NCBI GenBank assembly: GCA_046497505.1
Contig: JAWOFN010000075.1
Coordinates: forward strand, 1 to 47,581
Length of the DNA: 47,581 nucleotides
DNA from: JAWOFN01 sp046497505 [NCBI: bacterium]
GTDB taxonomy: Bacteria > Blakebacterota > Blakebacteria > Blakebacterales
Direction: 5' to 3'
The notes beneath the pieces were generated by a model, which saw nothing but the letters and a program-made list of their open reading frames with translations, was not told the DNA's origin and did not search any database. Positions 9,709 to 35,890 of the stretch are shown in pieces (the stretch's first letter is position 1; every line of letters begins with the position of its first letter). Position numbers and translations under genes: made by a program.

Positions 9709-12700
9709 TCAGAACTCCGCCAGGGGCGCCTTCCACCCCTGCTTCAAGGTCATGACGTCCTCGTCCACCAGCGTCCGCTCTCCCCGCCGAAGGAGCAGGC
9801 GGGGCTCGGGGGTGACGATCCCGATCCGGGCGAGGGGCTCGCCGCTCAGGGTCTCCTCGAAGGCCTCGGCGTCCTCATCCCGTACGGTGACGAAGAAGCG
9901 GCCGGCGCTCTCGCTGAAGAGCAGCCCCCAGCTGTCGGGGTCCTCCCCCCCGGCGGGGGGGACCGGGAGCAGGTCCAGGTCGACATCGAGCCCCAGTCCG
10001 GCTCCGAAGGCCATCCATGCCAGGGCCGCGGACGAGCCCCCCAGGGAGGGGGTCTTCACGCTCTGGGTGAGACCTCCGGAGATGGCCGAGGCCAGCTTCC
10101 CGTACCGGGCGGCGAAGGCCTCCGGGTCCACCGCGGGGAGGAGGCCCCCGACAGCGGCGTCCGGTGCCCTTCCTCCCCTCCGGTCCGCCCAGCGAGCGAA
10201 CTCGGAGGCGCCCAGTTCCTGGCGGGTGGTACCCACCGCGTACACCAGGTCCCCGGCGGCCTTCGGCTCGGGGGTGGAGGCCCGTCTCACGTCGTCGATG
10301 CGTCCCATCACGCTCACCAGGAGGGTGGGGGGGATGCTGATCTTCACGCCGCCCCGGGTCGAGTCGTTCTTCATGGAGTCCTTCCCCGAGATCAGGGGGA
10401 CCCCGAAACCCACGCATCCCCGGTGGAGCCCCTCACAGGCGCGCACCAGCTGGGCCATCTTGTAGCGTCCGTCGGGGGTCTGCTCGCTCAGCACGGGGTC
10501 CGGCCAGCAGAAGTTGTCGAGGGCGGAGATGGTGCCGGGACGGGCCCCGCCGGCGATGACCCGACGGACCGCCTCGTCCACCACGGCCAGGGCCATGCCC
10601 CGGGTGTCGATGTCGCTGTAATAGGGGTTCACCCCCTCGGCCAGCACCACGCCCTCGGGTCCCTCGTAATCCACCAGGAAGACGGTGGCGTCGGCCGGGA
10701 CGTCGGCCCCCGCGCCGGTGAACGGCTTGATCACGGTACGGCCCTTCACCTCGTGGTCGTACTGCCGGCACTTGGTCTCCTTGCTGGCCAGGTTCTCTCC
10801 CCGGAGGATGTCGGTGAGCACGCGGAGGGGGTCATCCTCCACAGGGCCGGTGTCCCGCACCCGCGGAGGTTCCCAGCGGGCGGGGAGGTGGGGCTGGGGC
10901 CAGCCTTCGTGGAGGAAGTCCATGTCCAGCAGGGCCACGGTACGATCCCCGTAGCGCACGTGGAAGTAGCCGGAGTCGGTGAAGGTGCCCAGGGGGGTGG
11001 CCTCCACCTCCCTGCGATCGGCCAGTTCCAGGAAGGCGTCCAGCTTCTCGGGGGGCACGGCCAGGGTCATCCGTTCCTGGGCCTCGGAGAGGAGGATCTC
11101 CCACGGCTCGAGCCCCGGGTACTTGAGGGGGGCCTTCGCCAGGTCCAGCTCGGCGCCGCCGGTCCCCTCGGCCATCTCCCCCACGCTGGAAGAGAGCCCG
11201 CCCGCCCCGTTGTCGGTGATGCTGTGATAGAGGAGCGCGTCGCGGGCCTCCAGCAGGAAGTCGGTCATCTTCTTCTGGGTGATGGGGTCCCCGATCTGGA
11301 CCGCCTGGGTGGGGGACTCCTCGTGGAGTTCCTGGCTGGAGAAGGTGGCGCCGTGGATGCCGTCCGCCCCGATGCGTCCGCCCACCATGACGATCACGTC
11401 CCCCACCTCCAGGATCTTCTCCTCGGAGGGTCTTCCGTCGGGCAGCTCGGCGGGCATGATGCCCACCGTCCCGCAGTAGACCAGCGGCTTGCCCAGGTAG
11501 CGCTCGTCGAAGAGTTCCCAGCCCCGGCCATAGGGGATGCCGGACTGGTTGCCCCCGTCGATGACCCCCTTGTGCACCCCGTCCCGGATCCGGCGGGGGT
11601 GCATGAGTCCCTCGGGCACCTCCCCGGCGTGGAAGGGGCTGGCGAAGCAGTACCCCCAGGTGTTCACCAGCAGATCGGCGCCCCGGCCGGTCCCGAAGGG
11701 GTCGCGGTTCACCCCCACGATACCCGTGATGGCCCCGCCGTATGGGTCGAGGGCGCTGGGGGTGTTGTGGGTCTCCACCTTGAAGACCAGGTTCGTCCCC
11801 TCTTTGAAGCGGACCACCCCGGCGTTGTCCTTGAAGACCGAAAGGAGCCAGTCCACCTCCCGGGCGACCTCGTCGGTGGTGCCCCGGATGTACCGGGTGA
11901 AGAGTCCCTCCTCGAGGGTCCGCCGTTCCCCGGTCTCGGTGTCCTCGTACTCCACCCGGCTGTTGAAGATCTTGTGCTTGCAGTGCTCCGACCAGGTCTG
12001 GGCCAGGGTCTCCATCTCGACGTCGGTGGGGTGGGGGCCCAGGCCCGCCTCCCGCCGCCGGGGATTCTCCGCCTGCGCCGCGAAATGGGCCCGGATGGTG
12101 CGCATCTCCTCCAGACTCAGGGCCCACAGACTCTTCCGGCTCAGGGCCAGCAGTTCGCTGTCAGGGAGGTCCAGGTCGAAGGCGGCCACCTCCGCCCCGG
12201 TCGGACTCCCGGCCCGGGGGGCCTCGGTCTCCCACGGCTCGGAGCGCCACTGTTCGAAGGAACGGATCCGGATGCTGTGGATCAGCGGGTTGGCCAGCAG
12301 GCCCTCGGCCAGCCGGCCGGCCTCCTCACGGGAGACCTCCCCTCTCAGCAAATAGAGGGTGGAGGTGAAGACCCTGTCATCCTCCTCCAGCCGGCGGCCC
12401 AGGAGGTCGCTGAGGGCGGTCCGGGCGGAGGTGCCCACGTTGTCGGTGACCCCGGGCTTGTAGCCGACCTGCACGGCCCACCGGAAGGGGCGGGCCGGGG
12501 CGGCGCCCAGGTGGGCCCGCTGGACCACCGGGTCTTCGAAGGCGGCGGCGGTCCGCTCCGCCTCCCGGGGGGAGATGTCGCTGTCCACCAGGTAGACGTC
12601 ACGGGTCTCCACCTCCTCGAGGCGGATGCCCAGGTCGCGGGCCGCCCGCACCGTCACACCCTCGCCCCGGGCGTCGCGTGCCTCGGGGAGGAAGGCGATC

Positions 12701-12756
12701 TCGATCCGGTAGGGCCGTTCGGCTTCGGGGACCGGAGGTGTGATGGGTTCGGTCAT
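9709..12756 (-). CDS. purL: phosphoribosylformylglycinamidine synthase, large PurL with PurS-like N-terminus
   Basis: A 1015-residue protein. Residues 15-165 contain two PurS-like alpha/beta halves (for example the segment YKPGVTDNVGTSARTALSDL). A linker follows, then the PurL signature TLAQTWSEHCKHKIF (about 255-270), the ATP and substrate loops FKVETHNTPSALDPYGGAITG and VGGRIGADGIHGATFSS, and a second AIRS-like half with ISGGLTQSVKTPSLGG. It converts FGAR to FGAM using ammonia from PurQ. No separate purS is present, and the fused domain can substitute for it. ATG 12756 is chosen by the start of homology. It lacks a ribosome site but has a promoter-like TATCTT seven bases upstream. An in-frame ATG at 12792 is the alternative. 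Confidence 0.92.
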   Translation of the reverse strand: MTEPITPPVPEAERPYRIEIAFLPEARDARGEGVTVRAARDLGIRLEEVETRDVYLVDSDISPREAERTAAAFEDPVVQRAHLGAAPARPFRWAVQVGYKPGVTDNVGTSARTALSDLLGRRLEEDDRVFTSTLYLLRGEVSREEAGRLAEGLLANPLIHSIRIRSFEQWRSEPWETEAPRAGSPTGAEVAAFDLDLPDSELLALSRKSLWALSLEEMRTIRAHFAAQAENPRRREAGLGPHPTDVEMETLAQTWSEHCKHKIFNSRVEYEDTETGERRTLEEGLFTRYIRGTTDEVAREVDWLLSVFKDNAGVVRFKEGTNLVFKVETHNTPSALDPYGGAITGIVGVNRDPFGTGRGADLLVNTWGYCFASPFHAGEVPEGLMHPRRIRDGVHKGVIDGGNQSGIPYGRGWELFDERYLGKPLVYCGTVGIMPAELPDGRPSEEKILEVGDVIVMVGGRIGADGIHGATFSSQELHEESPTQAVQIGDPITQKKMTDFLLEARDALLYHSITDNGAGGLSSSVGEMAEGTGGAELDLAKAPLKYPGLEPWEILLSEAQERMTLAVPPEKLDAFLELADRREVEATPLGTFTDSGYFHVRYGDRTVALLDMDFLHEGWPQPHLPARWEPPRVRDTGPVEDDPLRVLTDILRGENLASKETKCRQYDHEVKGRTVIKPFTGAGADVPADATVFLVDYEGPEGVVLAEGVNPYYSDIDTRGMALAVVDEAVRRVIAGGARPGTISALDNFCWPDPVLSEQTPDGRYKMAQLVRACEGLHRGCVGFGVPLISGKDSMKNDSTRGGVKISIPPTLLVSVMGRIDDVRRASTPEPKAAGDLVYAVGTTRQELGASEFARWADRRGGRAPDAAVGGLLPAVDPEAFAARYGKLASAISGGLTQSVKTPSLGGSSAALAWMAFGAGLGLDVDLDLLPVPPAGGEDPDSWGLLFSESAGRFFVTVRDEDAEAFEETLSGEPLARIGIVTPEPRLLLRRGERTLVDEDVMTLKQGWKAPLAEF

Positions 12757-12763
12757 GCAGCTC

Positions 12764-12769
12764 AAGATA
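12764..12769 (-). promoter_or_regulatory. possible -10 element for a leaderless purL mRNA
   Basis: On the minus strand TATCTT ends seven bases before ATG 12756, with TGAACA 17 bases further upstream as a weak -35. Transcription would start at or next to the initiation codon. There is no Shine-Dalgarno sequence here, which fits leaderless translation, but the match is weak. Confidence 0.28.
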
Positions 12770-12856
12770 GTACGGGGGGCCGTCGTGTTCATCCCTTTCC
12801 GTGCCCGTCTCCCGTCCCCTGCGGTGCCGGCGGGGGGCGGGGAGATCCGCTCGCCC

Positions 12857-12924
12857 GTACGATCACGTACTACGGGTACGATTGTTTCCTCCGGGCAAGT
12901 ACGATAACGTAACAACTAGTACGG
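12857..12924. promoter_or_regulatory. array of GTACG repeats, including GTACG-N4-CGTAC palindromes
   Basis: In the 441-base divergent gap between purL and the sigma-54 gene, GTACG recurs at 12857, 12876, 12899 and 12919, spacings of 19, 23 and 20 bases, so about two helical turns each. The first copy is a perfect palindrome GTACGATCACGTAC (12857-12870); the third, GTACGATAACGTAA (12899-12912), differs in one arm base; the second and fourth are half-sites. The array centre lies about 235 bases upstream of the -24/-12 promoter at 13123, a usual distance for the enhancer sites of sigma-54 activators. The same palindrome form occurs immediately upstream of the activator gene at 15482. Inferred role: binding sites of that activator. 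The rest of the gap shows no gene. Confidence 0.55.
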
Positions 12925-13122
12925 CTTCGGGACACCCCGGGATCCGCATGCCGGCAGGGGCCGAGAGGGATCGGTGCCTTCTCCCTCACCGAAGACGAAA
13001 TGTGCCCGCCGGGGCTGATCCCTGTAAGTAATTGACGGACATATGGTTGCATGTTCCCTCGATCGGCTCCTCCGCTGCCGACCCCCGACGGAGGGGAAGC
13101 GGGGGCCTCCGCATCCGGGATG

Positions 13123-13139
13123 TTGGCACGGGGATTGCA
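13123..13139 (+). promoter_or_regulatory. sigma-54 (-24/-12) promoter
   Basis: TTGGCACG, four bases, TTGCA: an exact match to the RpoN consensus, with GG at 13125-13126 and GC at 13137-13138 separated by the required 10 bases. Transcription would begin near 13150, about 48 bases before the ATG of the membrane protein at 13198. A sigma-54 activator gene with a GAFTGA motif lies just downstream on the other strand, supporting function. Confidence 0.85.
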
Positions 13140-13197
13140 AGTTTACCTGGAGTGAATGCAGACGGACACACATCAGCCCGGAGGAGATGAGGCCCCC

Positions 13198-13779
13198 ATG
13201 AGTACCATCACCGCGATCAGCATGGCGAAGGCCGTGAGCGCACGTCGGGCCCGGTGGCAGTGGGTCGCGGCCGCGGGCACGGTGATCGCGCTGGGCGGGA
13301 TCCTCGTGGGAGCCACCCCTCTCTCCGCCCATGTGCCCCTGCCGAGCTGGGCCCTGGCAGCGCTGGCGCTCCTGGGCCTCGGGCTGATGGGGACCGCCGG
13401 CCTGCGGCTGGTCTCCCTGCGTCCCGGCACAGCGGGTCCCGCGTCGAGGGAGGAGGAACGGGAACTCCCGTCGGACTCCTGGACCTCCCTGGCGCAGGCG
13501 ATGGGATCGGTCCGCTCGGGCAACATGCCCGTGCTGCAGGTGCCGGAGGACGCGGGTGAGACCGAGCGCGCGGCGTTCGAGCGTTCCAACGAGGCGTTTC
13601 AGTTCCTCGCGAGGCGGCAGAGAGTGATCAGGGCTGCCCTCGACGAGCTTCGCGGGGAACTGAACAATTACTACAGGTACCTGACCAAGAGTCAGGTGGG
13701 TCTTATCGGGGCCAATAGCGTGGCTGAGCGGCTCGAACAATTCGACGAGCGGCTGGCGAAGATCCGTTCGGCCATGTGA
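13198..13779 (+). CDS. unknown two-helix membrane protein under sigma-54 control
   Basis: A 193-residue protein I do not recognise. A basic N-terminus (residues 8-20) is followed by two transmembrane helices (about 22-41 and 50-75) joined by a short loop, then an acidic linker (about 85-115) and a charged helical C-terminal domain (about 118-193) rich in Arg, Glu and Leu that may form a coiled coil. The arrangement suggests both termini are cytoplasmic. ATG 13198 is chosen over the upstream in-frame ATG 13156, because the latter would lie only about six bases from the predicted sigma-54 start site and has no ribosome site; GATGAGG precedes 13198. It is convergent with the activator gene at 13939-15471. 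No paralogue or partner gene is visible. Confidence 0.75.
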   Translation: MSTITAISMAKAVSARRARWQWVAAAGTVIALGGILVGATPLSAHVPLPSWALAALALLGLGLMGTAGLRLVSLRPGTAGPASREEERELPSDSWTSLAQAMGSVRSGNMPVLQVPEDAGETERAAFERSNEAFQFLARRQRVIRAALDELRGELNNYYRYLTKSQVGLIGANSVAERLEQFDERLAKIRSAM

Positions 13780-13938
13780 CGGGCCCCGATATCCTTCAAG
13801 TCCGGCCGGGAGCCGCCGGTTCGACCCTGGGCTCTCGGTGCCCCGACCGGATCGGGACGCGTCCTGGATCGGTGAGGATTGCACCCCCTCCCCGGCCGGG
13901 ACGCGTTCCTCTATCGTACCCGGTCCTCCCGGGGCCCC

Positions 13939-15471
13939 TCATCGATTCACCCGCCAGCTGGGGTGGGTGATGCCGTACTTGGAGATCTTGTAGTTCAGCG
14001 AACGGCGGCTGATGCCCAGCAGCCGGGCCGCACGGCTCTGGACGTGGCCGGTGGACTCCAGGGCCCGTACGATGGCCTGCCGCTCCACCTCCTCGAGGTC
14101 GAGGACCGCTCCCCCCTCCCCCTCCGCGGCGCCGGTCGTCTCCATCGCCTCCTCCCGGTCCGCTCCGGGACGCCCGGGGTCGCCGCCCCCCCTCTCCCCG
14201 CCCGCCGGCTCCGGCTCGGGGAAGGAGGGTTCGGGGCCCCCGCGCTGCAGCTCCTCGGGGCGGCGGGGAGGCCGGTGGAAGATGGAGAGGTCCTCCCTGC
14301 GGATGCGGGGACCCTCGGATAGGAGGACGGCCTGCATCACCGTGTTCTCCAGTTCCCGCACGTTCCCCGGCCAGGGATAGGTCCGCATGAAGGCCAGGGC
14401 GTCTTCGCCCAACTCCAGCTCCGGACGTTTCTCCTCGAACTGCGCCTTCTTCAGGAAGAAGCGGGCCAGCAGGGGGATGTCGCTCGTCCGCTCCCGCAGC
14501 GGGGGGATCCGGATGGTGACCACGTTGAGCCGGTAGTAGAGGTCTTCCCGAAAGGTGCCCCTGCGCAGGGCATGCTCCAGGTCCCGGTTGGTGGCGGCGA
14601 TGATGCGCACGTTCACCCGGATCAGACGGGTGCCTCCCACACGTTCGAACTCCTGGGTCTGGAGGACCCGGAGCACCTTGGCCTGGATGCCCGGGCTCAT
14701 CTCTCCGATCTCGTCCAGGAAGAGGGTGCCGCCGTGGGCCTGTTCGAAGCGTCCGATCCGCTGCCGCACCGCGCCGGTGAAGGCCCCCTTCTCGTGGCCG
14801 AAGAGGTCGGATTCCAGCAGGGTGTCCTGGAGGGCGGCGCAGTTCACCTTGATGAAGGCCTGGTCCCGGCGGGGTGAGTTGTAGTGGATGGCCGCGGCGA
14901 TGAGCTCCTTGCCCGTGCCCGTCTCCCCGGTGATGAGGACCGGCGAGGTGCTGGGCGCCACCTTGCGCACCTGGGTGAAGACCCGCTCCATCCCGGCACT
15001 CTCCCCCACGATGTCGTCGACCTCGAAGATGTGGCCGCTCTTGCCCCGGTAGTAGTTCCGCTGGGCCAGCCAGCTGTAGGTCTCGCACGCCTTCTGGGCC
15101 CGCAGTCCCAGCTCCTCGACGCTCAGGGGGGCGCGCACCGCGTCGTGGACGCCGGCCGCGGTGACGCGGTCCAGGGCCTCCCCGTCCGGGACGTTGAAGA
15201 GGAGCAGCCGGGTCTGCGTGCTGGAATCGAAGGTCTCCTCGATGAACTCGCTCACCCGGCCGTCCGGTCCCTCCCCTTCCCCGGCCTCGGAGGTGAGCAG
15301 CCGGTAGTCCGCCGCCGCCACCCCGAAGACCAGCTGGGCCACCAGGCGGCGGAAGGCCTCCCAGTGGGGAGCGTGCACCAGGTATTCGGAGGATTCGCCC
15401 GCGAGGCGGGCGAGATCGTCCCGGAGCCGGGTATCGTCGGTGAGCAGCAGGGTCGGGCAGGTGAGTTCCAT
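13939..15471 (-). CDS. sigma-54-dependent activator with a degenerate receiver domain
   Basis: A 510-residue enhancer-binding protein. Residues 1-125 resemble a response-regulator receiver (LLLTDD at 8-13; helix and strand spacing), but the conserved lysine after strand 5 is arginine (RAP, 113-115) and no clear phospho-acceptor Asp follows strand 3. The AAA+ core has Walker A GETGTGKE (182-189), GAFTGA (229-234) for sigma-54 contact, and Walker B GGTLFLDE (247-254). An acidic Pro/Gly-rich linker (about 405-460) leads to a Fis-type helix-turn-helix ([20 protein letters not shown]). It probably activates the -24/-12 promoter at 13123 and regulates itself through the palindrome at 15482. With no usable phosphorylation site, control is likely by protein contact or expression level. 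GAGAGG precedes ATG 15471. Confidence 0.9.
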
Positions 15472-15481
15472 GCCTCTCAGT

Positions 15482-15495
15482 GTACAAAAACGTAC
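15482..15495. promoter_or_regulatory. GTACA-N4-CGTAC palindrome at the activator start
   Basis: GTACAAAAACGTAC lies 11 bases upstream of the activator ATG (15471). It has the same 5-4-5 architecture as the perfect palindrome at 12857-12870, with one mismatched arm base. Its position over the promoter or leader suits autoregulation by the encoded factor. The 36-base gap to the next upstream gene contains nothing else notable. Confidence 0.5.
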
Positions 15496-15531
15496 TTCAC
15501 CGGGTCAACGCCGGCTTCCGGCCGGCCCCGC

Positions 15532-16278
15532 TCACCCGCCCCCTTCATCGTCCCCCTCGACCCTTCGGTCCCGGCCGCCCTCACCTCCCTCCCCTTCCTG
15601 CTCCCCCTCCTCCTCCGGCCCCTCGAGGAGGAGGTCGGCCGAGGTGCCGGAGCGGTCCTTGAACTGCTCGGCCAGGCTCTCGGGGACGGGGAGGTCGGAG
15701 AGGCCCACCATGAGGAGGGCCTCGATGACCGCGGCCCCGATGAGCAGGGGTACCGCGGCCTTCAGGAAGAAGGCGGTGGCCCAGGTGGGATCGGCGAGCA
15801 GGTCGAACCAGCCCAGGCCCGCCCGGAAGGCGGTGGCCTGGAGAGCGGCGGCCGAGGCGGTGATCACCGCGGGGAGTTCGATCCAGGCGTGAGGCATGAG
15901 CAGGGCGAGCCACGCCTTCCCTCCCCCCAGACGCTGGGCCATCACCCCGGTGTTGACCCCCACGGCCAGCAGGAGGAGCAGGCTCAGGGGGGGGATGCGG
16001 CAGGCCGCGACGATGAGGCCGGTGGAGAGGATGTTCACCGCCGAGATGAGGGCCACCAGGCCGGGGATACTCCGCCGCCGGGAACCCAGCCACGCTTCGA
16101 GGCGCCGCAGGACGTACCGTCCCCAGGCCGCGGCCCAGCGGATGTCGCGCCGCTCCGCCGTCATCCCCAGGGCCAGCCCGACTGCGAAAAGGACCGCCGC
16201 CGCGGCCACGGCCGCTCCGTCCAGGGGCCCCCAGACGAAGCCCCACGGCCTGGCCATCCACCACAATACCGTTGACAC
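15532..16278 (-). CDS. SpoIIM (DUF95)-like membrane protein
   Basis: A 248-residue protein with about five hydrophobic segments between residues 18 and 210 and a highly acidic, Gly/Glu-rich tail (about 215-248). The segment MPHAWIELPAVITASAAAL (about 129-147) is the hallmark of the stage II sporulation protein M family, which also occurs widely in non-sporulating bacteria with unknown roles in the membrane. GTG 16278 is preferred: AGGAGG lies seven bases upstream; the first ATG is seven codons later without a ribosome site. It follows the sigma-54 activator gene on the same strand in the reverse order of transcription, so it would be transcribed first, and is divergent from greA. Confidence 0.68.
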   Translation of the reverse strand: MSTVLWWMARPWGFVWGPLDGAAVAAAAVLFAVGLALGMTAERRDIRWAAAWGRYVLRRLEAWLGSRRRSIPGLVALISAVNILSTGLIVAACRIPPLSLLLLLAVGVNTGVMAQRLGGGKAWLALLMPHAWIELPAVITASAAALQATAFRAGLGWFDLLADPTWATAFFLKAAVPLLIGAAVIEALLMVGLSDLPVPESLAEQFKDRSGTSADLLLEGPEEEGEQEGEGGEGGRDRRVEGDDEGGG

Positions 16279-16331
16279 CCCTGTCCTCCTGCCTTTGACT
16301 GTCCTCGAAGGGCGGCTCCGCCGCCCGGAAG

Positions 16332-29312: not shown

Positions 29313-30110
29313 CTGACGAAGAGGGACCGGAGCGATGCGCGGGCGTCGGCTGAGACGCTGCAGCGCGAGCTCGGTCACCGGTTCCGCGATCCGGAGCTCC
29401 TGGAGGAGGCCCTGTCCCACCGTTCCTTCGTGGGAGCCAGGGGTGAGGACCGTCTCGAATCGTATGAACGGCTGGAGTTCCTGGGCGACGCGGTCCTCGA
29501 CCTGGTGGTGGCCGAGGAACTCTTCCGCCGCTACTGCGACAAGTCGGAGGGGGAGCTGACCCAGCTCAAGTCCCTCCTCGTCTCCCGCCCCATACTCCGG
29601 AAGACAGCCGTCGACCTGGGCATCGGGGAGGCCCTTTTCCTCTCGGAGAACGAGGAATCGATGGGCGGCCGCCGACGGGCCAGCATACTGGCCGACGGGT
29701 TGGAGGCGGTCCTGGGCGCCCTCTACCTGGACGGCGGGTACGACCGGGTACGGTCGGTGGTGGTCGAGCGGCTGGTCACCAAACTCCCCGAGGTGGTGCG
29801 CCAGCCCGATAACCGCAACTACAAGAGCATGCTCCTGGAGTATGTCCAGAAGCAGAAGAGGGGACACCTGCATTACCGCACCAAGCGGGAGCAGGGACCG
29901 GACCACAGCAAGACCTTCACCGTGGAGGTCCTCCTGGACGGGAAGGTCCTGGGAGAGGGTACGGCCGACTCGAAGAAGCAGGCACAGCAGCTGGCGGCCC
30001 GGATGGCCCTGCACCGGCTGGGGGTCCCCCCGGGCGATCCCCTGAACGGTCCCCCCCCGGAGGGGGGGCCGCAGGGTGAGGGGACCGGCACGCGAAGGGG
30101 GACGTCGTGA
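29313..30110 (+). CDS. rnc: ribonuclease III (start uncertain)
   Basis: RNase III endonuclease for double-stranded RNA in rRNA maturation and mRNA control. The nuclease signature ERLEFLGDAVLDL and the second acidic site ADGLEAVLGALYLDGG are followed by a C-terminal dsRNA-binding domain (NYKSMLLEYVQ to SKKQAQQLAARMAL) and a disordered Gly/Pro tail. The frame contains the family N-terminus LQRELGHRFRDPELLEEALS upstream of the first GTG (29430), which lies inside the conserved HRSFV. Between TGA 29265 and that point there is no ATG, GTG or TTG. CTG 29313 is given here as a provisional start. ATG 29335 has a good purine-rich site but is one base out of frame. Conserved acpP-fabF-rnc order. Confidence 0.85.
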   Translation: MTKRDRSDARASAETLQRELGHRFRDPELLEEALSHRSFVGARGEDRLESYERLEFLGDAVLDLVVAEELFRRYCDKSEGELTQLKSLLVSRPILRKTAVDLGIGEALFLSENEESMGGRRRASILADGLEAVLGALYLDGGYDRVRSVVVERLVTKLPEVVRQPDNRNYKSMLLEYVQKQKRGHLHYRTKREQGPDHSKTFTVEVLLDGKVLGEGTADSKKQAQQLAARMALHRLGVPPGDPLNGPPPEGGPQGEGTGTRRGTS

Positions 30111-30964: not shown

Positions 30965-32668
30965 ATGCGACGTATCCTCCCATACGGGCTGGTGGGCCTG
31001 GTCGTCCTGCTGCTGCTCGGCGGCGCGGGTCCCTCCGATCCCCTCTCGGGGCCGGGGTGGGTCCGCGGTGGGCCCCTCCCTCAGCCCAGGGGGGAACGGG
31101 TGCTCCACATCGGGCTCGTGGGGCGCGGCCGGTTCCACCCCCTGCCGCCGGCCCTCATGGAGGAGGGACCGGAGCGGTGGGTCATGGAGCAGGTCTACGG
31201 GCCCGGCCTCCATGCCCGGGGGCGGAACGGTCTTCCGGACAGCCGGACCGTCCTCACCGCGGAGATCATCGACGGGGTGCGGCCGGGGTGGACCTTCTAC
31301 ACCCTCTACCCCGAGATCCGCTACCAGGACGGGACCCTGCTGCGCCTGGAGGATATCCGCAGCACCTACCATCTCTACCGTGACATGGCCCGAGCGGGGG
31401 ACGCGGGCCTGGATCCCGCCTTCGCCTTCCTCGACTCGGTCAGTCTCGGACGGGACCTCAACCGGGTGGGGCTGGTCATGCCCGCCCGTTTCGGTGACCA
31501 GGCCCACCGATTGGCCGCCAGCACCCCCCTGCATCCGGCCATGCTCCGGGGTCTCCCCGAGGGTCCTCAGGAGGTCCGGGCCACCCTCGAGAGCCGTGAT
31601 ATCGTCGCCCTGGGATCGTACCGTCTCTCCTTCGATGTCCGGGGGGAGCGGGAGGGGAGGAGCGTGCAGGGTTCGGAGGTCATCATGCGGCTCGAGGCGG
31701 ACGACACCGGCCCCATGCCCGACCCGGAGGTCCGGAGGGTCGTCATCCATCTCTTCCCGAACGACCAGGAACTGGTCCGGGCCTTCGTCACGGGTCGGAT
31801 CCAGGTGGCGCGTCTTCCCAGCTACGCCGCGCAGAGTCGTCTGAGGGAGGAGATGAGCGGCCAGGAGGACCGGGGCTTCATCAGCCGGTTCTTCCACCAG
31901 CGGGACCACTTCATCTTCCTGGCTTTCAACAACGCCTTCCAGCCCCTCCGGTCCGCCCCCATGCGGCGTGCCCTGGCCTATGCGGTGAACCGTGAGGCGA
32001 TGAAGCACCCGGAGCTGCGCGAGGTGGACGTGGTGAGCGACGTGCCCCTGCTTCCCGGCACCCCCTTCGGCAGGACCGTCCAGTACACCTATCGCCCGCG
32101 CCATGCCGCGGTCCTCCTGAGGGAGGCGGGCTACACGATGCGGGGCGGGGAACTGGTGGACGAGGCGGGAAGCACGGTGCTCTTCAACCTCATCTACCCC
32201 GGCACGGGTCGCCATTTCGAGCAGATCGCACGGCGGATCAAGGTGGACCTGCAGAGTGTGGGGGTCATGGTGAACGCCGAACCCCTCTGTCCCGAGGAGA
32301 TCGATGAGCGGCTCCGCGAGGGGAACTACCAGATGGCCCTCTCCGAGATGAGCCTCCCCCCCACATCCGAGGCCCTCCTCCGCCTCTTCCACAGCGACAA
32401 CGCCGCCACGGGGGTCAACTTCACCCGCTACCGCAGCCGCACCTTCGATTCCAACATCGAGGCTGCGGTGGTGCGTTCCGACATCGAGGAACCCGATCCC
32501 TACTATCGGGGGGCCGTGGAGCGCATCCAGGAGGACATCCCCCTGATCCCCATCTACTTCGAGAGACGAAGCTACTACGCCTTCGACACGACCGTGCTGG
32601 ACGCGGGCAGCGTGGGAAGGATCAGCCGCCAGCTGGAACCCCTGGCCCGCTGGAGGTGGAGCCGGTGA
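30965..32668 (+). CDS. family 5 extracellular solute-binding protein (peptide-type), orphan
   Basis: A 567-residue protein with an N-terminal hydrophobic signal (about 5-22, no lipobox cysteine). The SBP family 5 pattern is visible: PEIRYQDGTLLRLEDIRSTY (about 117-136), the middle segment FIFLAFNNAFQPLRSAPMRR with VNREAM, and PLIPIYFERRSYY at the end. It would bind an oligopeptide or similar ligand in the periplasm. No permease or ATPase genes are near. The stop overlaps the start of a periplasmic-sensor histidine kinase, so it may deliver ligand information to signalling rather than to transport. It begins 9 bases after lipM. Confidence 0.82.
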   Translation: MRRILPYGLVGLVVLLLLGGAGPSDPLSGPGWVRGGPLPQPRGERVLHIGLVGRGRFHPLPPALMEEGPERWVMEQVYGPGLHARGRNGLPDSRTVLTAEIIDGVRPGWTFYTLYPEIRYQDGTLLRLEDIRSTYHLYRDMARAGDAGLDPAFAFLDSVSLGRDLNRVGLVMPARFGDQAHRLAASTPLHPAMLRGLPEGPQEVRATLESRDIVALGSYRLSFDVRGEREGRSVQGSEVIMRLEADDTGPMPDPEVRRVVIHLFPNDQELVRAFVTGRIQVARLPSYAAQSRLREEMSGQEDRGFISRFFHQRDHFIFLAFNNAFQPLRSAPMRRALAYAVNREAMKHPELREVDVVSDVPLLPGTPFGRTVQYTYRPRHAAVLLREAGYTMRGGELVDEAGSTVLFNLIYPGTGRHFEQIARRIKVDLQSVGVMVNAEPLCPEEIDERLREGNYQMALSEMSLPPTSEALLRLFHSDNAATGVNFTRYRSRTFDSNIEAAVVRSDIEEPDPYYRGAVERIQEDIPLIPIYFERRSYYAFDTTVLDAGSVGRISRQLEPLARWRWSR

Positions 32669-34501
32669 GCGATCGGCCCCGGGCACCGAAACAGCAGCTG
32701 CCCCTGGTGGGGGGTCTCTTCCGCAGGCTCTTCCTGCACCACCTGGTCCTGGTCACCGTCCCCATCGTGATCCTGGGCCTGCTGCTGGTGCGTATCGCGG
32801 AGAACTCCATCCGTCAGACCCAGGCGGAGGACAACCAGGAGATCACCCTCCGGGCCCAGGGACAGATCCTGGACTACCTCAAGTTCGTGGAGGGGCAGCA
32901 CTATCTCACGGCGCTGAGCATCGAGAACCTCATCGGACCGGGTGAGGAGGGCCCGCGCTTCAACACGCTGGCCATCGACAACTTCCTGAACCAGGCCGCC
33001 ATGGACCCGGATGCCACCATCTTCAGCGACCTCTATGCCCTGGGACCCGACATGGAGCTGGTTGCCACCACCGATTTCACCATCCAGGACGCCTCGGGGC
33101 TCGGGGCCCGGGTGACCGAGGCGGCACGTACGGCCCTGGGCGGGGTCCCCAGGACCCTGCCGGTGCTCATCGAGGGGACCAGCCGGCTGCCCACCGTGGT
33201 GAAGGCCCTTCCCCTGACCGTTCGGCAGGAGGTGGCCGGGGCGCTGGTCGTGAAGGTGAACATCCACGAGATGTGGGACCTCATCGACCGGATCGAGGTG
33301 GGGGAGCGGGGCCGGGCCTTCCTGGTGAACCAGGAAGGGGTCCTGATCGCCCACGAGGACAAGTCGCTGGTCTACGGGCAGGCCGACTACTCGCACCTGG
33401 AGAGCGTGAGCGCCGCGCTCTCCCGGGAGGAGCCGGGCCAGGTGGACACCGAGCAGGCGGGTGAGGAGAGCGAGCCGATGATGGCGGCCTACGCCCCCAT
33501 CCGTGATGCCGGCCTGGTCTGGGGATTGATCATCCATCGTCCCCTCGCGGAGGTCCAGGCCGTGGTGGGACGGATGCGTCTCCAGATCCTCACGGTCATC
33601 TTCATCGGGATCGCCCTGGCCCTGATCTCCACGCTGGTCTACACCCGCCGCCTCATCCGGCCCATCGGGACCCTGGTGGACGGTGCCAACCGGCTGAGCC
33701 AGGGCGACCTGAGCTACAAGATCCCCGTGGCGGGCCGGGACGAGCTGGGGACCCTGGCCGCCGAGTTCAACCTCATGGCCGAACGCCTCAGCCGCATCCA
33801 GGAGCGCCTGCGCCGTGCGGAGCACCTGGACACGCTGGCCAAGTTCTCCAGCGTGGTGGCCCATGAGATCCGCAACCCCCTCAACGCCATGCAGATCAAC
33901 CTGCACCTGCTGGAGGAGCGGCTGGACGAGGAGGACCAGGAGTACCTGGATGTCATAGGCGGGGAGATCCGACGGCTGGAGAACCTGGTGCGGGAGTTCC
34001 AGGACATCTCCCGGCCCCCCGCCCTCTCGCTGCAGTCGACGGACGTGAACGAACTGCTGTCCGACCTCGTCAACTTGCAGAGGGGGACGGCCGACAAACA
34101 GGATGTGGAGGTGAAGAAGGACTTCGATCGGCAGCTTCCGAGGATCCAGGTCGACCGGAACCGCATCACCCAGGCCGTCCTGAACCTGGTGCTCAACGCC
34201 TTCCAGTCCATGCCGGAAGGGGGGGAACTCACCCTCCGGACACGGCCGCGGGAGGATGGGCGCCCGGGGATTTCCATTCAAGTTTCGGACACGGGTGAGG
34301 GTATACCCGAAGAGAAGGTGAGCAAGGTGTTCGATTTCTACTACACCTCCCGTGATTCGGGCTCCGGTCTCGGATTATCCATCGCGCAGCAGATCGTGGA
34401 CGAACACGGGGGACAGATCACCCTGGACAGCGAGATCGGCGAGGGAACGACGATCACGATCCGTCTTCCTGCCCGACCGCCGGAGGATGGTCCCCCAGCA
34501 C

Positions 34502-34518
<17 letters not shown>
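32665..34518 (+). CDS. dCache-HAMP sensor histidine kinase
   Basis: A 617-residue membrane kinase. Transmembrane helices at about 22-44 and 305-327 enclose a 260-residue periplasmic sensor of dCache type (AFLVNQEGVLIAHED in its second half). HAMP follows (328-380), then HisKA with His400 in VVAHEIRNPLNAMQ and an ATPase domain with NLVLNAFQSM, DTGEGIPEE and GSGLGLSIAQQIV. GTG 32665 overlaps the binding-protein stop (GTGA) with GGAGG eight bases upstream. Cognate regulator is almost surely the NtrC-type protein encoded next, whose start lies inside this gene's end. Confidence 0.93.

Positions 34519-35889
<1,371 letters not shown>

Positions 35890-35890
<1 letters not shown>

What the first reader, a model, noticed from the sequence alone, without database searches (positions are those of the whole stretch)
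12757..15495. Self-contained sigma-54 module controlling an unknown membrane protein
A consensus -24/-12 promoter (13123-13139) drives a 193-residue two-helix membrane protein of no recognised family. The convergent neighbour is a sigma-54 activator. Promoter, target, activator and candidate enhancer sites are all within 2.7 kb with no other genes. The promoter and the activator motifs are seen directly; their functional link is inferred. The layout recalls PrsR-type control of PEP-CTERM genes in other bacteria, but no exosortase or PEP-CTERM signal is present, so this may be a separate system.
Basis: partly seen in the sequence, partly recalled or inferred. Interest (0 to 1): 0.72.

Follow-up and report, generated by a model that had tools for sequence, protein, structure and literature searches.

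The report
Sigma-54 gene carrying hidden structured RNA
A bacterial gene that is probably switched on by its neighbouring activator encodes a small membrane protein, and the end of its message also folds into a conserved RNA shape, so one controlled transcript may yield both a protein and a regulatory RNA.

Summary
The -24/-12 site (13124-13139) is an exact match, unique in the window. All four held genomes of the one phylum I could reach carry the 193-aa protein (51-57% identical), a like promoter and the same convergent activator. Three enhancer-like sites lie upstream in all five, stepped 22/19 bp in four and 19/23 in the window; the outer pair beat 500 of 500 shuffles in each. The activator-target link is well supported, not shown by experiment. 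PrsR/PEP-CTERM kinship is not supported.

Alifold z is -9.0, against -2.0 to +1.2 in 24 control windows. Fourteen pairs show two-sided changes, synonymous sites are unusually conserved, and Rfam has no match. Most likely the message is dual: a two-helix membrane protein plus a 3'-end-derived RNA, as in sigma-54-driven glnA/GlnZ. Release and targets are inferred. Evidence rests on five sequences.

The parts
12857..12870 (+). enhancer-like site A, GTACGATCACGTAC
12876..12889 (+). enhancer-like site B (weak, placed by eye)
12899..12912 (+). enhancer-like site C, GTACGATAACGTAA
13124..13139 (+). -24/-12 sigma-54 promoter; start predicted near 13150
13198..13779 (+). 193-aa two-helix membrane protein; last 33 codons also under RNA constraint
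13679..13916 (+). conserved structured RNA (alignment window 13660-13916), single locus per genome
13679..13697 (+). P1 hairpin, inside the coding sequence
13705..13790 (+). P2 long rod, coding sequence paired with 3' UTR across the stop codon (13777-13779)
13800..13853 (+). P3 covarying stem, 3' UTR
13854..13909 (+). P4 terminator-like hairpin with conserved UGCACCC loop
13939..15471 (-). sigma-54 activator with degenerate receiver-like N-domain
15482..15495 (.). palindromic copy of the enhancer motif before the activator start (this genome only)
15532..16302 (-). SpoIIM-like membrane protein gene upstream of the activator (start approximate)

Best explanation
A sigma-54 activator with a degenerate receiver-like domain is encoded behind, and in the relatives overlapping, a SpoIIM-like membrane protein gene. 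It binds three sites about 145-270 bp upstream and fires the -24/-12 promoter of the convergent gene, its only target that I could find. The transcript makes a 193-aa two-helix membrane protein. Its last ~33 codons, stop codon and 3' UTR also fold into a structured RNA of about 240 nt that ends in a terminator-like hairpin. Most likely RNase E/G or RNase III frees this 3' end as a stable RNA that pairs in trans through exposed conserved loops such as UGCACCC, so that one signal yields a protein and a regulatory RNA. Shown by comparison: promoter, sites, pairing of activator and target, RNA structure, extra constraint on the codons. Inferred: binding, release, trans action, and the signal.
For: Promoter, sites and activator in 5 of 5; one clear activator orthologue per relative, 62-64% identity against at most 52% for other activators. 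RNA: alifold -168.8, z -9.0 against 200 column shuffles, plus strand better than minus (-146.4); z -2.0 to +1.2 in 24 control windows (13 activator sense, 7 antisense, 4 ORF body). 14 pairs with changes on both sides, 0 of 500 shuffles as high, 1-5 in slid versions. Same codon in 205 of 289 synonymous-capable comparisons in the last 33 codons against 333 of 767 before; none of 358 scored activator windows exceeds 0.64 against 0.71. One full-length locus per relative. P4 loop pattern once per relative. RNase E/G in 4 of 4 relatives, an RNase III gene in the window. Precedent: GlnZ from sigma-54-driven glnA mRNA, RNase E sites flanking the stop codon (PMC9731577, passages).
Against: No transcript data. 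Five sequences in about three lineages: G001/G002 and G003/G004 are close pairs. With synonymous codons redrawn, the rod is clear in the window (0 of 500 as stable) and G004 (10 of 500) but weak in G001 (52), G002 (33) and G003 (30); for the whole RNA 1, 64, 33, 25 and 5 of 300 (window, G001-G004). The coding part alone has z -2.9 and at least one of 300 column shuffles was as low. Further pair types do not exceed shuffles (110 of 500). No Hfq in 4 of 4 relatives. The consensus terminator scan found none in window or L001; the loop is 9 nt and the window's U-tail weak. No target known. G001 has 16 strong activator hits, so cross-talk is possible. Six off-locus near-matches of the site motif against 1 for the reversed control; none has a convincing promoter or second site.
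Confidence: 0.5

Rival explanations
1. The RNA acts only in cis. The folded 3' end of the message sets its stability or translation, or pairs with a read-through transcript of the convergent activator gene, and is never released as a separate RNA.
For: P2 pairs codons with 3' UTR across the stop codon, so translation and folding must compete. The genes converge within 160 bp, so activator transcripts could run into the RNA. No Hfq in 4 of 4 relatives.
Against: P3 and P4 lie wholly in the 3' UTR and have a loop sequence conserved beyond what a terminator needs, once per relative.
Confidence: 0.3
2. An ordinary sigma-54 target gene. The RNA signal is only a strong terminator plus codon preference at the end of a conserved protein tail.
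For: The tail is also the best conserved protein part, 0.88 amino-acid identity against 0.51 before it. Codon-redrawn nulls are weak in three genomes.
Against: Activator windows of up to 0.93 amino-acid identity do not reach the same codon conservation. z -8.9 against 24 ordinary windows. Two-sided changes in P2, P3 and P4.
Confidence: 0.08
3. A Psp-like feedback loop: the membrane protein, or the SpoIIM-like protein, binds and restrains the activator until the membrane is stressed. This could hold together with either RNA reading.
For: The activator lacks a canonical receiver and overlaps a membrane protein gene in 4 of 4 relatives; its target is a membrane protein. The Psp comparison is recalled.
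Against: The activator misses the PspF model, 297.7 against 443.55 bits. No test of binding. The protein could not be modelled (pLDDT 47.4).
Confidence: 0.15
4. A PrsR-type control of surface proteins.
For: Single-gene target with a large intergenic region, enhancer-like motif and -24/-12 (PMC1569441, passages).
Against: TIGR02915 missed, 353.3 against 502.6. Exosortase 0 of 4 relatives. Nearest kinase gene found is 17 kb away beside its own regulator.
Confidence: 0.02

Closest known systems
glnA/GlnZ of enterobacteria (PMC9731577; passages read)
   Same: sigma-54 promoter with an enhancer-bound NtrC-family activator; [quoted passage not shown]
   Different: GlnZ works with Hfq and stems from a metabolic enzyme gene; here Hfq was not found in 4 of 4 relatives, the fold covers about 33 codons, and the protein is an unknown membrane protein. 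Release is not shown here
mRNA 3'-end-derived small RNAs such as CpxQ and RsaC (PMC9438474; passages read)
   Same: 3' end of a regulated mRNA; RsaC is freed by RNase III from a double-stranded structure
   Different: release and targets not shown here; long structured overlap with coding sequence
PrsR/PEP-CTERM control (PMC1569441; passages read)
   Same: single-gene target, large intergenic region, activator motif plus -24/-12
   Different: no exosortase in relatives, activator below TIGR02915 cut-off, no adjacent kinase
OLE RNA with membrane protein OapA (PMC12265935, PMC11332333; listing and abstract openings only)
   Same: a structured RNA linked to a membrane protein
   Different: no Rfam match in the window; about 240 nt rather than about 600; overlaps the protein's own codons; sigma-54 promoter

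Membership tests
sigma-54 activator (NtrC-type) | sigma-54 interaction AAA+ domain with GAFTGA loop | tested here: met
   PF00158 246.7 bits; GAFTGA in window and G001, GSFTGA in G002-G004 (motif name recalled)
sigma-54 activator (NtrC-type) | Fis-type HTH | tested here: met
   PF02954 59.3 bits, cut-off 22
phosphorylatable response regulator | canonical receiver domain | tested here: not met
   no PF00072 hit in 5 of 5 N-domains; Asp55 invariant, acidic pair not conserved, Arg where a Lys is usual (residue roles recalled); receiver-like fold only from a low-confidence model, pLDDT 58.9
sigma-54 promoter | GG and GC at -24/-12 spacing | tested here: met
   5 of 5 genomes
sigma-54 promoter | RpoN-dependent transcript start near 13150 | not testable with these tools
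   no RNA data; RpoN in 4 of 4 relatives
PrsR/PEP-CTERM system | activator above the TIGR02915 cut-off | tested here: not met
   353.3 against 502.6 bits
PrsR/PEP-CTERM system | exosortase in the genome | tested here: not met
   PF09721 0 of 4 relatives; window's own genome not held
PspF/PspA | activator above the TIGR02974 cut-off | tested here: not met
   297.7 against 443.55 bits
mRNA 3'-end-derived small RNA | intrinsic terminator at the 3' end | tested here: inconclusive
   strong conserved hairpin, T-run clear in G001 and G002 only; consensus scan found none
mRNA 3'-end-derived small RNA | processed fragment with trans targets | not testable with these tools
   needs RNA-seq, Northern blot, target assays
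known Rfam RNA family (including 6S, OLE) | covariance-model match | tested here: not met
   0 at gathering score in the window; only sub-threshold matches at E<=10 for window, L001 and L021 stretches

The most novel reading that the evidence does not exclude
The locus encodes a membrane ribonucleoprotein: the two-helix protein, through its conserved basic C-terminal stretch, binds the structured RNA encoded in the 3' end of its own gene, partly by the very codons for that stretch. This would be an OLE-like membrane RNA particle induced on demand by a dedicated sigma-54 activator in a poorly sampled bacterial phylum.
Probability: 0.1. Interest if true: 0.85.

Novelty: new variant of a known kind. 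Interest (0 to 1): 0.6.

Why it matters
It gives a structured RNA without a match in Rfam 15, conserved in all members reached of a poorly sampled phylum, with its control circuit laid out in about 2.7 kb. It would extend dual-product sigma-54 messages (protein plus 3' RNA), known from enterobacteria that use Hfq, to a lineage where Hfq was not found. The RNA shares about 100 nt with coding sequence, so protein and RNA evolve under joint constraint. The activator and its apparently single promoter also make a compact, testable regulatory pair.

Tried and rejected
Fold of the 193-aa protein: AlphaFold2 on two sequences gave mean pLDDT 47.4, so no fold search was run with it. Solved-structure profile search: best E 0.84. 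PHROGs: one weak hit (E 0.036) in 1 of 5 members. Plasmids and phages: no match to the protein. Viral contigs: pattern hits but no relative, no match to an RNA pattern. Plasmids with the L001 RNA: none. 6S RNA: RF00013 found in 0 of 4 relatives, so a 6S copy elsewhere could not serve as contrast. tRNA or tmRNA: none in the window. A sigma-70 promoter inside the ORF end to drive the RNA alone: 0 found in window and L001 stretches. A GGGUG/CACCC loop-loop pair between P3 and P4 was seen by eye in the relatives but not in the window, and is not claimed. A second target of the activator in G001: the promoter-like site in L038 (1 mismatch, 200 bp from a motif hit) lies, read by eye, inside a coding frame, and the motif hit is isolated. 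Naming the phylum: one paper names a sister MAG of the same series, from Guaymas Basin hydrothermal sediment, of another lineage; the accession stem is in no held paper.

Limits: the genome-contig scan used six exact peptide patterns and found one relative; the phylum search then found four genomes, so absence elsewhere is not shown. No metagenome scan was available. In one search only 150 first-look candidates per genome were scored, of 178-504. One search left out activator windows with under 150 comparisons; one search left out windows with over 60 gaps in a row of the alignment. I found no report of this RNA or circuit in the papers listed, which cover open-licence papers only and did not search for it by name.
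Full report
OBSERVATION. The -24/-12 site at 13124-13139 is an exact consensus match and the only exact one in the window. By itself this is weak: in the four relatives the exact pattern occurs 9 times against 13 for the reversed control. The downstream ORF 13198-13779 encodes 193 aa, with hydrophobic regions at about 21-44 and 46-74 and no Pfam or NCBIfam family above cut-off. The convergent ORF 13939-15471 is a sigma-54 activator. A start near 13150 follows from the usual spacing and was not measured.

RELATIVES. The window's own genome is not held. One genome-contig scan found one relative, MAG contig JALGVQ010000014.1. Its phylum has 4 genomes in the collection, and 4 of 4 encode the protein, 53-58% identical over the matched part; over the whole alignment 51-57%. 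The SpoIIM-like gene and greA follow on the activator side in 4 of 4; purL is seen on the other side in the two relatives whose contigs reach it, G002 and G004. In G002 the gene is split over two contigs that overlap by 114 identical bases.

REGULATION. A promoter TGGCA[CT]N5TTGC[AG] stands before the gene in 5 of 5. Three sites lie upstream. Start-to-start steps are 22 and 19 bp in 4 of 4 relatives and 19 and 23 in the window; the sites start at -143 to -191 from the promoter in relatives and -225 to -267 in the window. The middle site is weak and was placed by eye. A matrix made from the outer sites of the other four genomes finds the outer pair in each held-out genome, with 0 of 500 shuffles as high in all five; spacing and register were learned from all five. 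At most one mismatch gives 10 motif hits in the 4 relative genomes: 4 at this locus (G001 two, both exact; G002 one; G003 one; G004 none) and 6 elsewhere, against 1 for the reversed control. The 6 others are isolated sites; the best nearby promoter-like match, in L038, lies inside what reads by eye as a coding frame, so I do not count it as a target. One activator per relative is clearly orthologous, 62-64% identity; other activators reach at most 52%. G001 has 16 strong activator hits and one weak one. RpoN is present in 4 of 4. In the 4 relatives the SpoIIM-like stop overlaps the activator start as ATGA (sequence; I checked the frame by hand coordinates). In the window a 60-bp gap holds a palindromic copy of the site motif (15482-15495), which suggests autoregulation in this genome.

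ACTIVATOR INPUT. The N-domain has no Pfam match above cut-off in 5 of 5. A low-confidence model (pLDDT 58.9) matches receiver folds; one match has E below 0.001 (FixJ, 4.5e-4, TM 0.49). Asp55 is invariant, the upstream acidic pair is not, and Arg stands where a Lys is usual (residue roles recalled). So it is probably a degenerate receiver, and phosphorylation is doubtful.

THE HIDDEN RNA. The intergenic region was unexpectedly conserved. Aligning 13660-13916 with the four relatives gives a consensus fold with P1 (13679-13697), P2 (13705-13790, spanning the stop codon 13777-13779), P3 (13800-13853) and P4 (13854-13909). The alifold energy is -168.8, against -117.6 +/- 5.7 in 200 column shuffles, z -9.0. 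The 3' UTR alone gives z -7.0; the coding part alone -2.9, with at least one of 300 shuffles as low. The minus strand gives -146.4. The same test on 24 windows of neighbouring coding sequence (13 activator sense, 7 antisense, 4 ORF body) gives z -2.0 to +1.2, and -8.9 for the RNA on repetition. Pair counts: 89.9% of 406 cells form standard pairs; 14 pairs have changes on both sides, 0 of 500 shuffles as high, 1-5 in slid versions. One measure, further pair types, is not above its shuffles (110 of 500 as high). The structure counted was derived from these sequences, which favours it over slid versions.

CODING CONSTRAINT. Among identical amino acids with synonymous choices, the same codon is used in 205 of 289 comparisons in the last 33 codons and 333 of 767 before them; no other window of that length in the ORF exceeds 0.51. 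In 10 of 10 genome pairs the tail exceeds the body, in 9 of 10 it exceeds the activator; none of 358 scored activator windows exceeds 0.64, against 0.71. A stricter null that redraws synonymous codons gives rod z -3.5 (window), -1.3, -1.5, -1.7 and -2.2 (G001-G004), so the coding part is strong in the window and G004 and modest in the others. Upstream codons differ mostly at third positions (0.374, 0.281, 0.568 per codon), so the ORF is a real gene.

IDENTITY. Rfam gives no match at gathering score in the window and only sub-threshold ones at E<=10 for stretches of window, L001 and L021. A covariance model finds one full-length locus in each of 4 relatives, plus the split-contig piece in G002 and two weak antisense hits of the hairpin itself; 150 first-look candidates per genome were scored. 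In the window it finds one full-length match and two weak partial ones. The P4 loop pattern GAGGNNTGCACCCCCTC occurs once per relative at up to one mismatch, at this locus, with 1 hit for the reversed control in G001, so it is not a common terminator repeat.

MECHANISM. No RNA data exist here. RNase E/G is present in 4 of 4 relatives, an RNase III gene lies in the window at 29430-30110, and Hfq was not found in 4 of 4. The closest worked precedent is glnA/GlnZ: sigma-54 promoter, NtrC, and an RNA released from the mRNA 3' end by RNase E at sites flanking the stop codon (PMC9731577, passages). RsaC shows release by RNase III (PMC9438474, passages). I therefore favour a dual-product message, with cis action as the main rival. 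The bold reading, a membrane RNP, rests only on co-encoding and a basic C-terminal stretch (11-13 K/R against 7-8 D/E in the last 60 residues).

KNOWN SYSTEMS. PrsR control is alike in layout only (PMC1569441, passages): TIGR02915 is missed and exosortase is found in 0 of 4. The window's second activator (34352-35890) also misses TIGR02915, 411.2 against 502.6.

JUDGEMENT. Circuit real: about 0.9. Structured RNA real: about 0.9. Released trans-acting RNA: about 0.5. All comparative evidence rests on five sequences in roughly three lineages.

Noticed in passing
32656-34518 (+) and 34352-35890 (+): A histidine kinase (dCache, HAMP) followed by a second sigma-54 response regulator with a canonical receiver; kinase homology continues in syntenic order in G001 and G002, and each of those contigs also carries an activator hit near that end.
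   Followed up: partly
15482-15495: Palindromic copy of the enhancer motif directly before the activator start; absent from the corresponding place in the 4 relatives, where the SpoIIM-like gene overlaps the activator.
   Followed up: partly
15471-16302; relatives L017, L019, L020, L021: SpoIIM-like membrane gene overlaps the activator start (ATGA) in 4 of 4 relatives; it may be the sensor or a partner.
   Followed up: partly
activators in L019, L020, L021: The sigma-54 contact loop reads GSFTGA instead of GAFTGA in three of five orthologues.
   Followed up: no
9709-12915 (-): Large PurL-type protein with a PurS-like region within it (PF02700 and two AIRS_C stretches).
   Followed up: no
relatives G001-G004: Hfq and 6S RNA found in 0 of 4 genomes with the standard models; completeness of these genomes is not told.
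   Followed up: no
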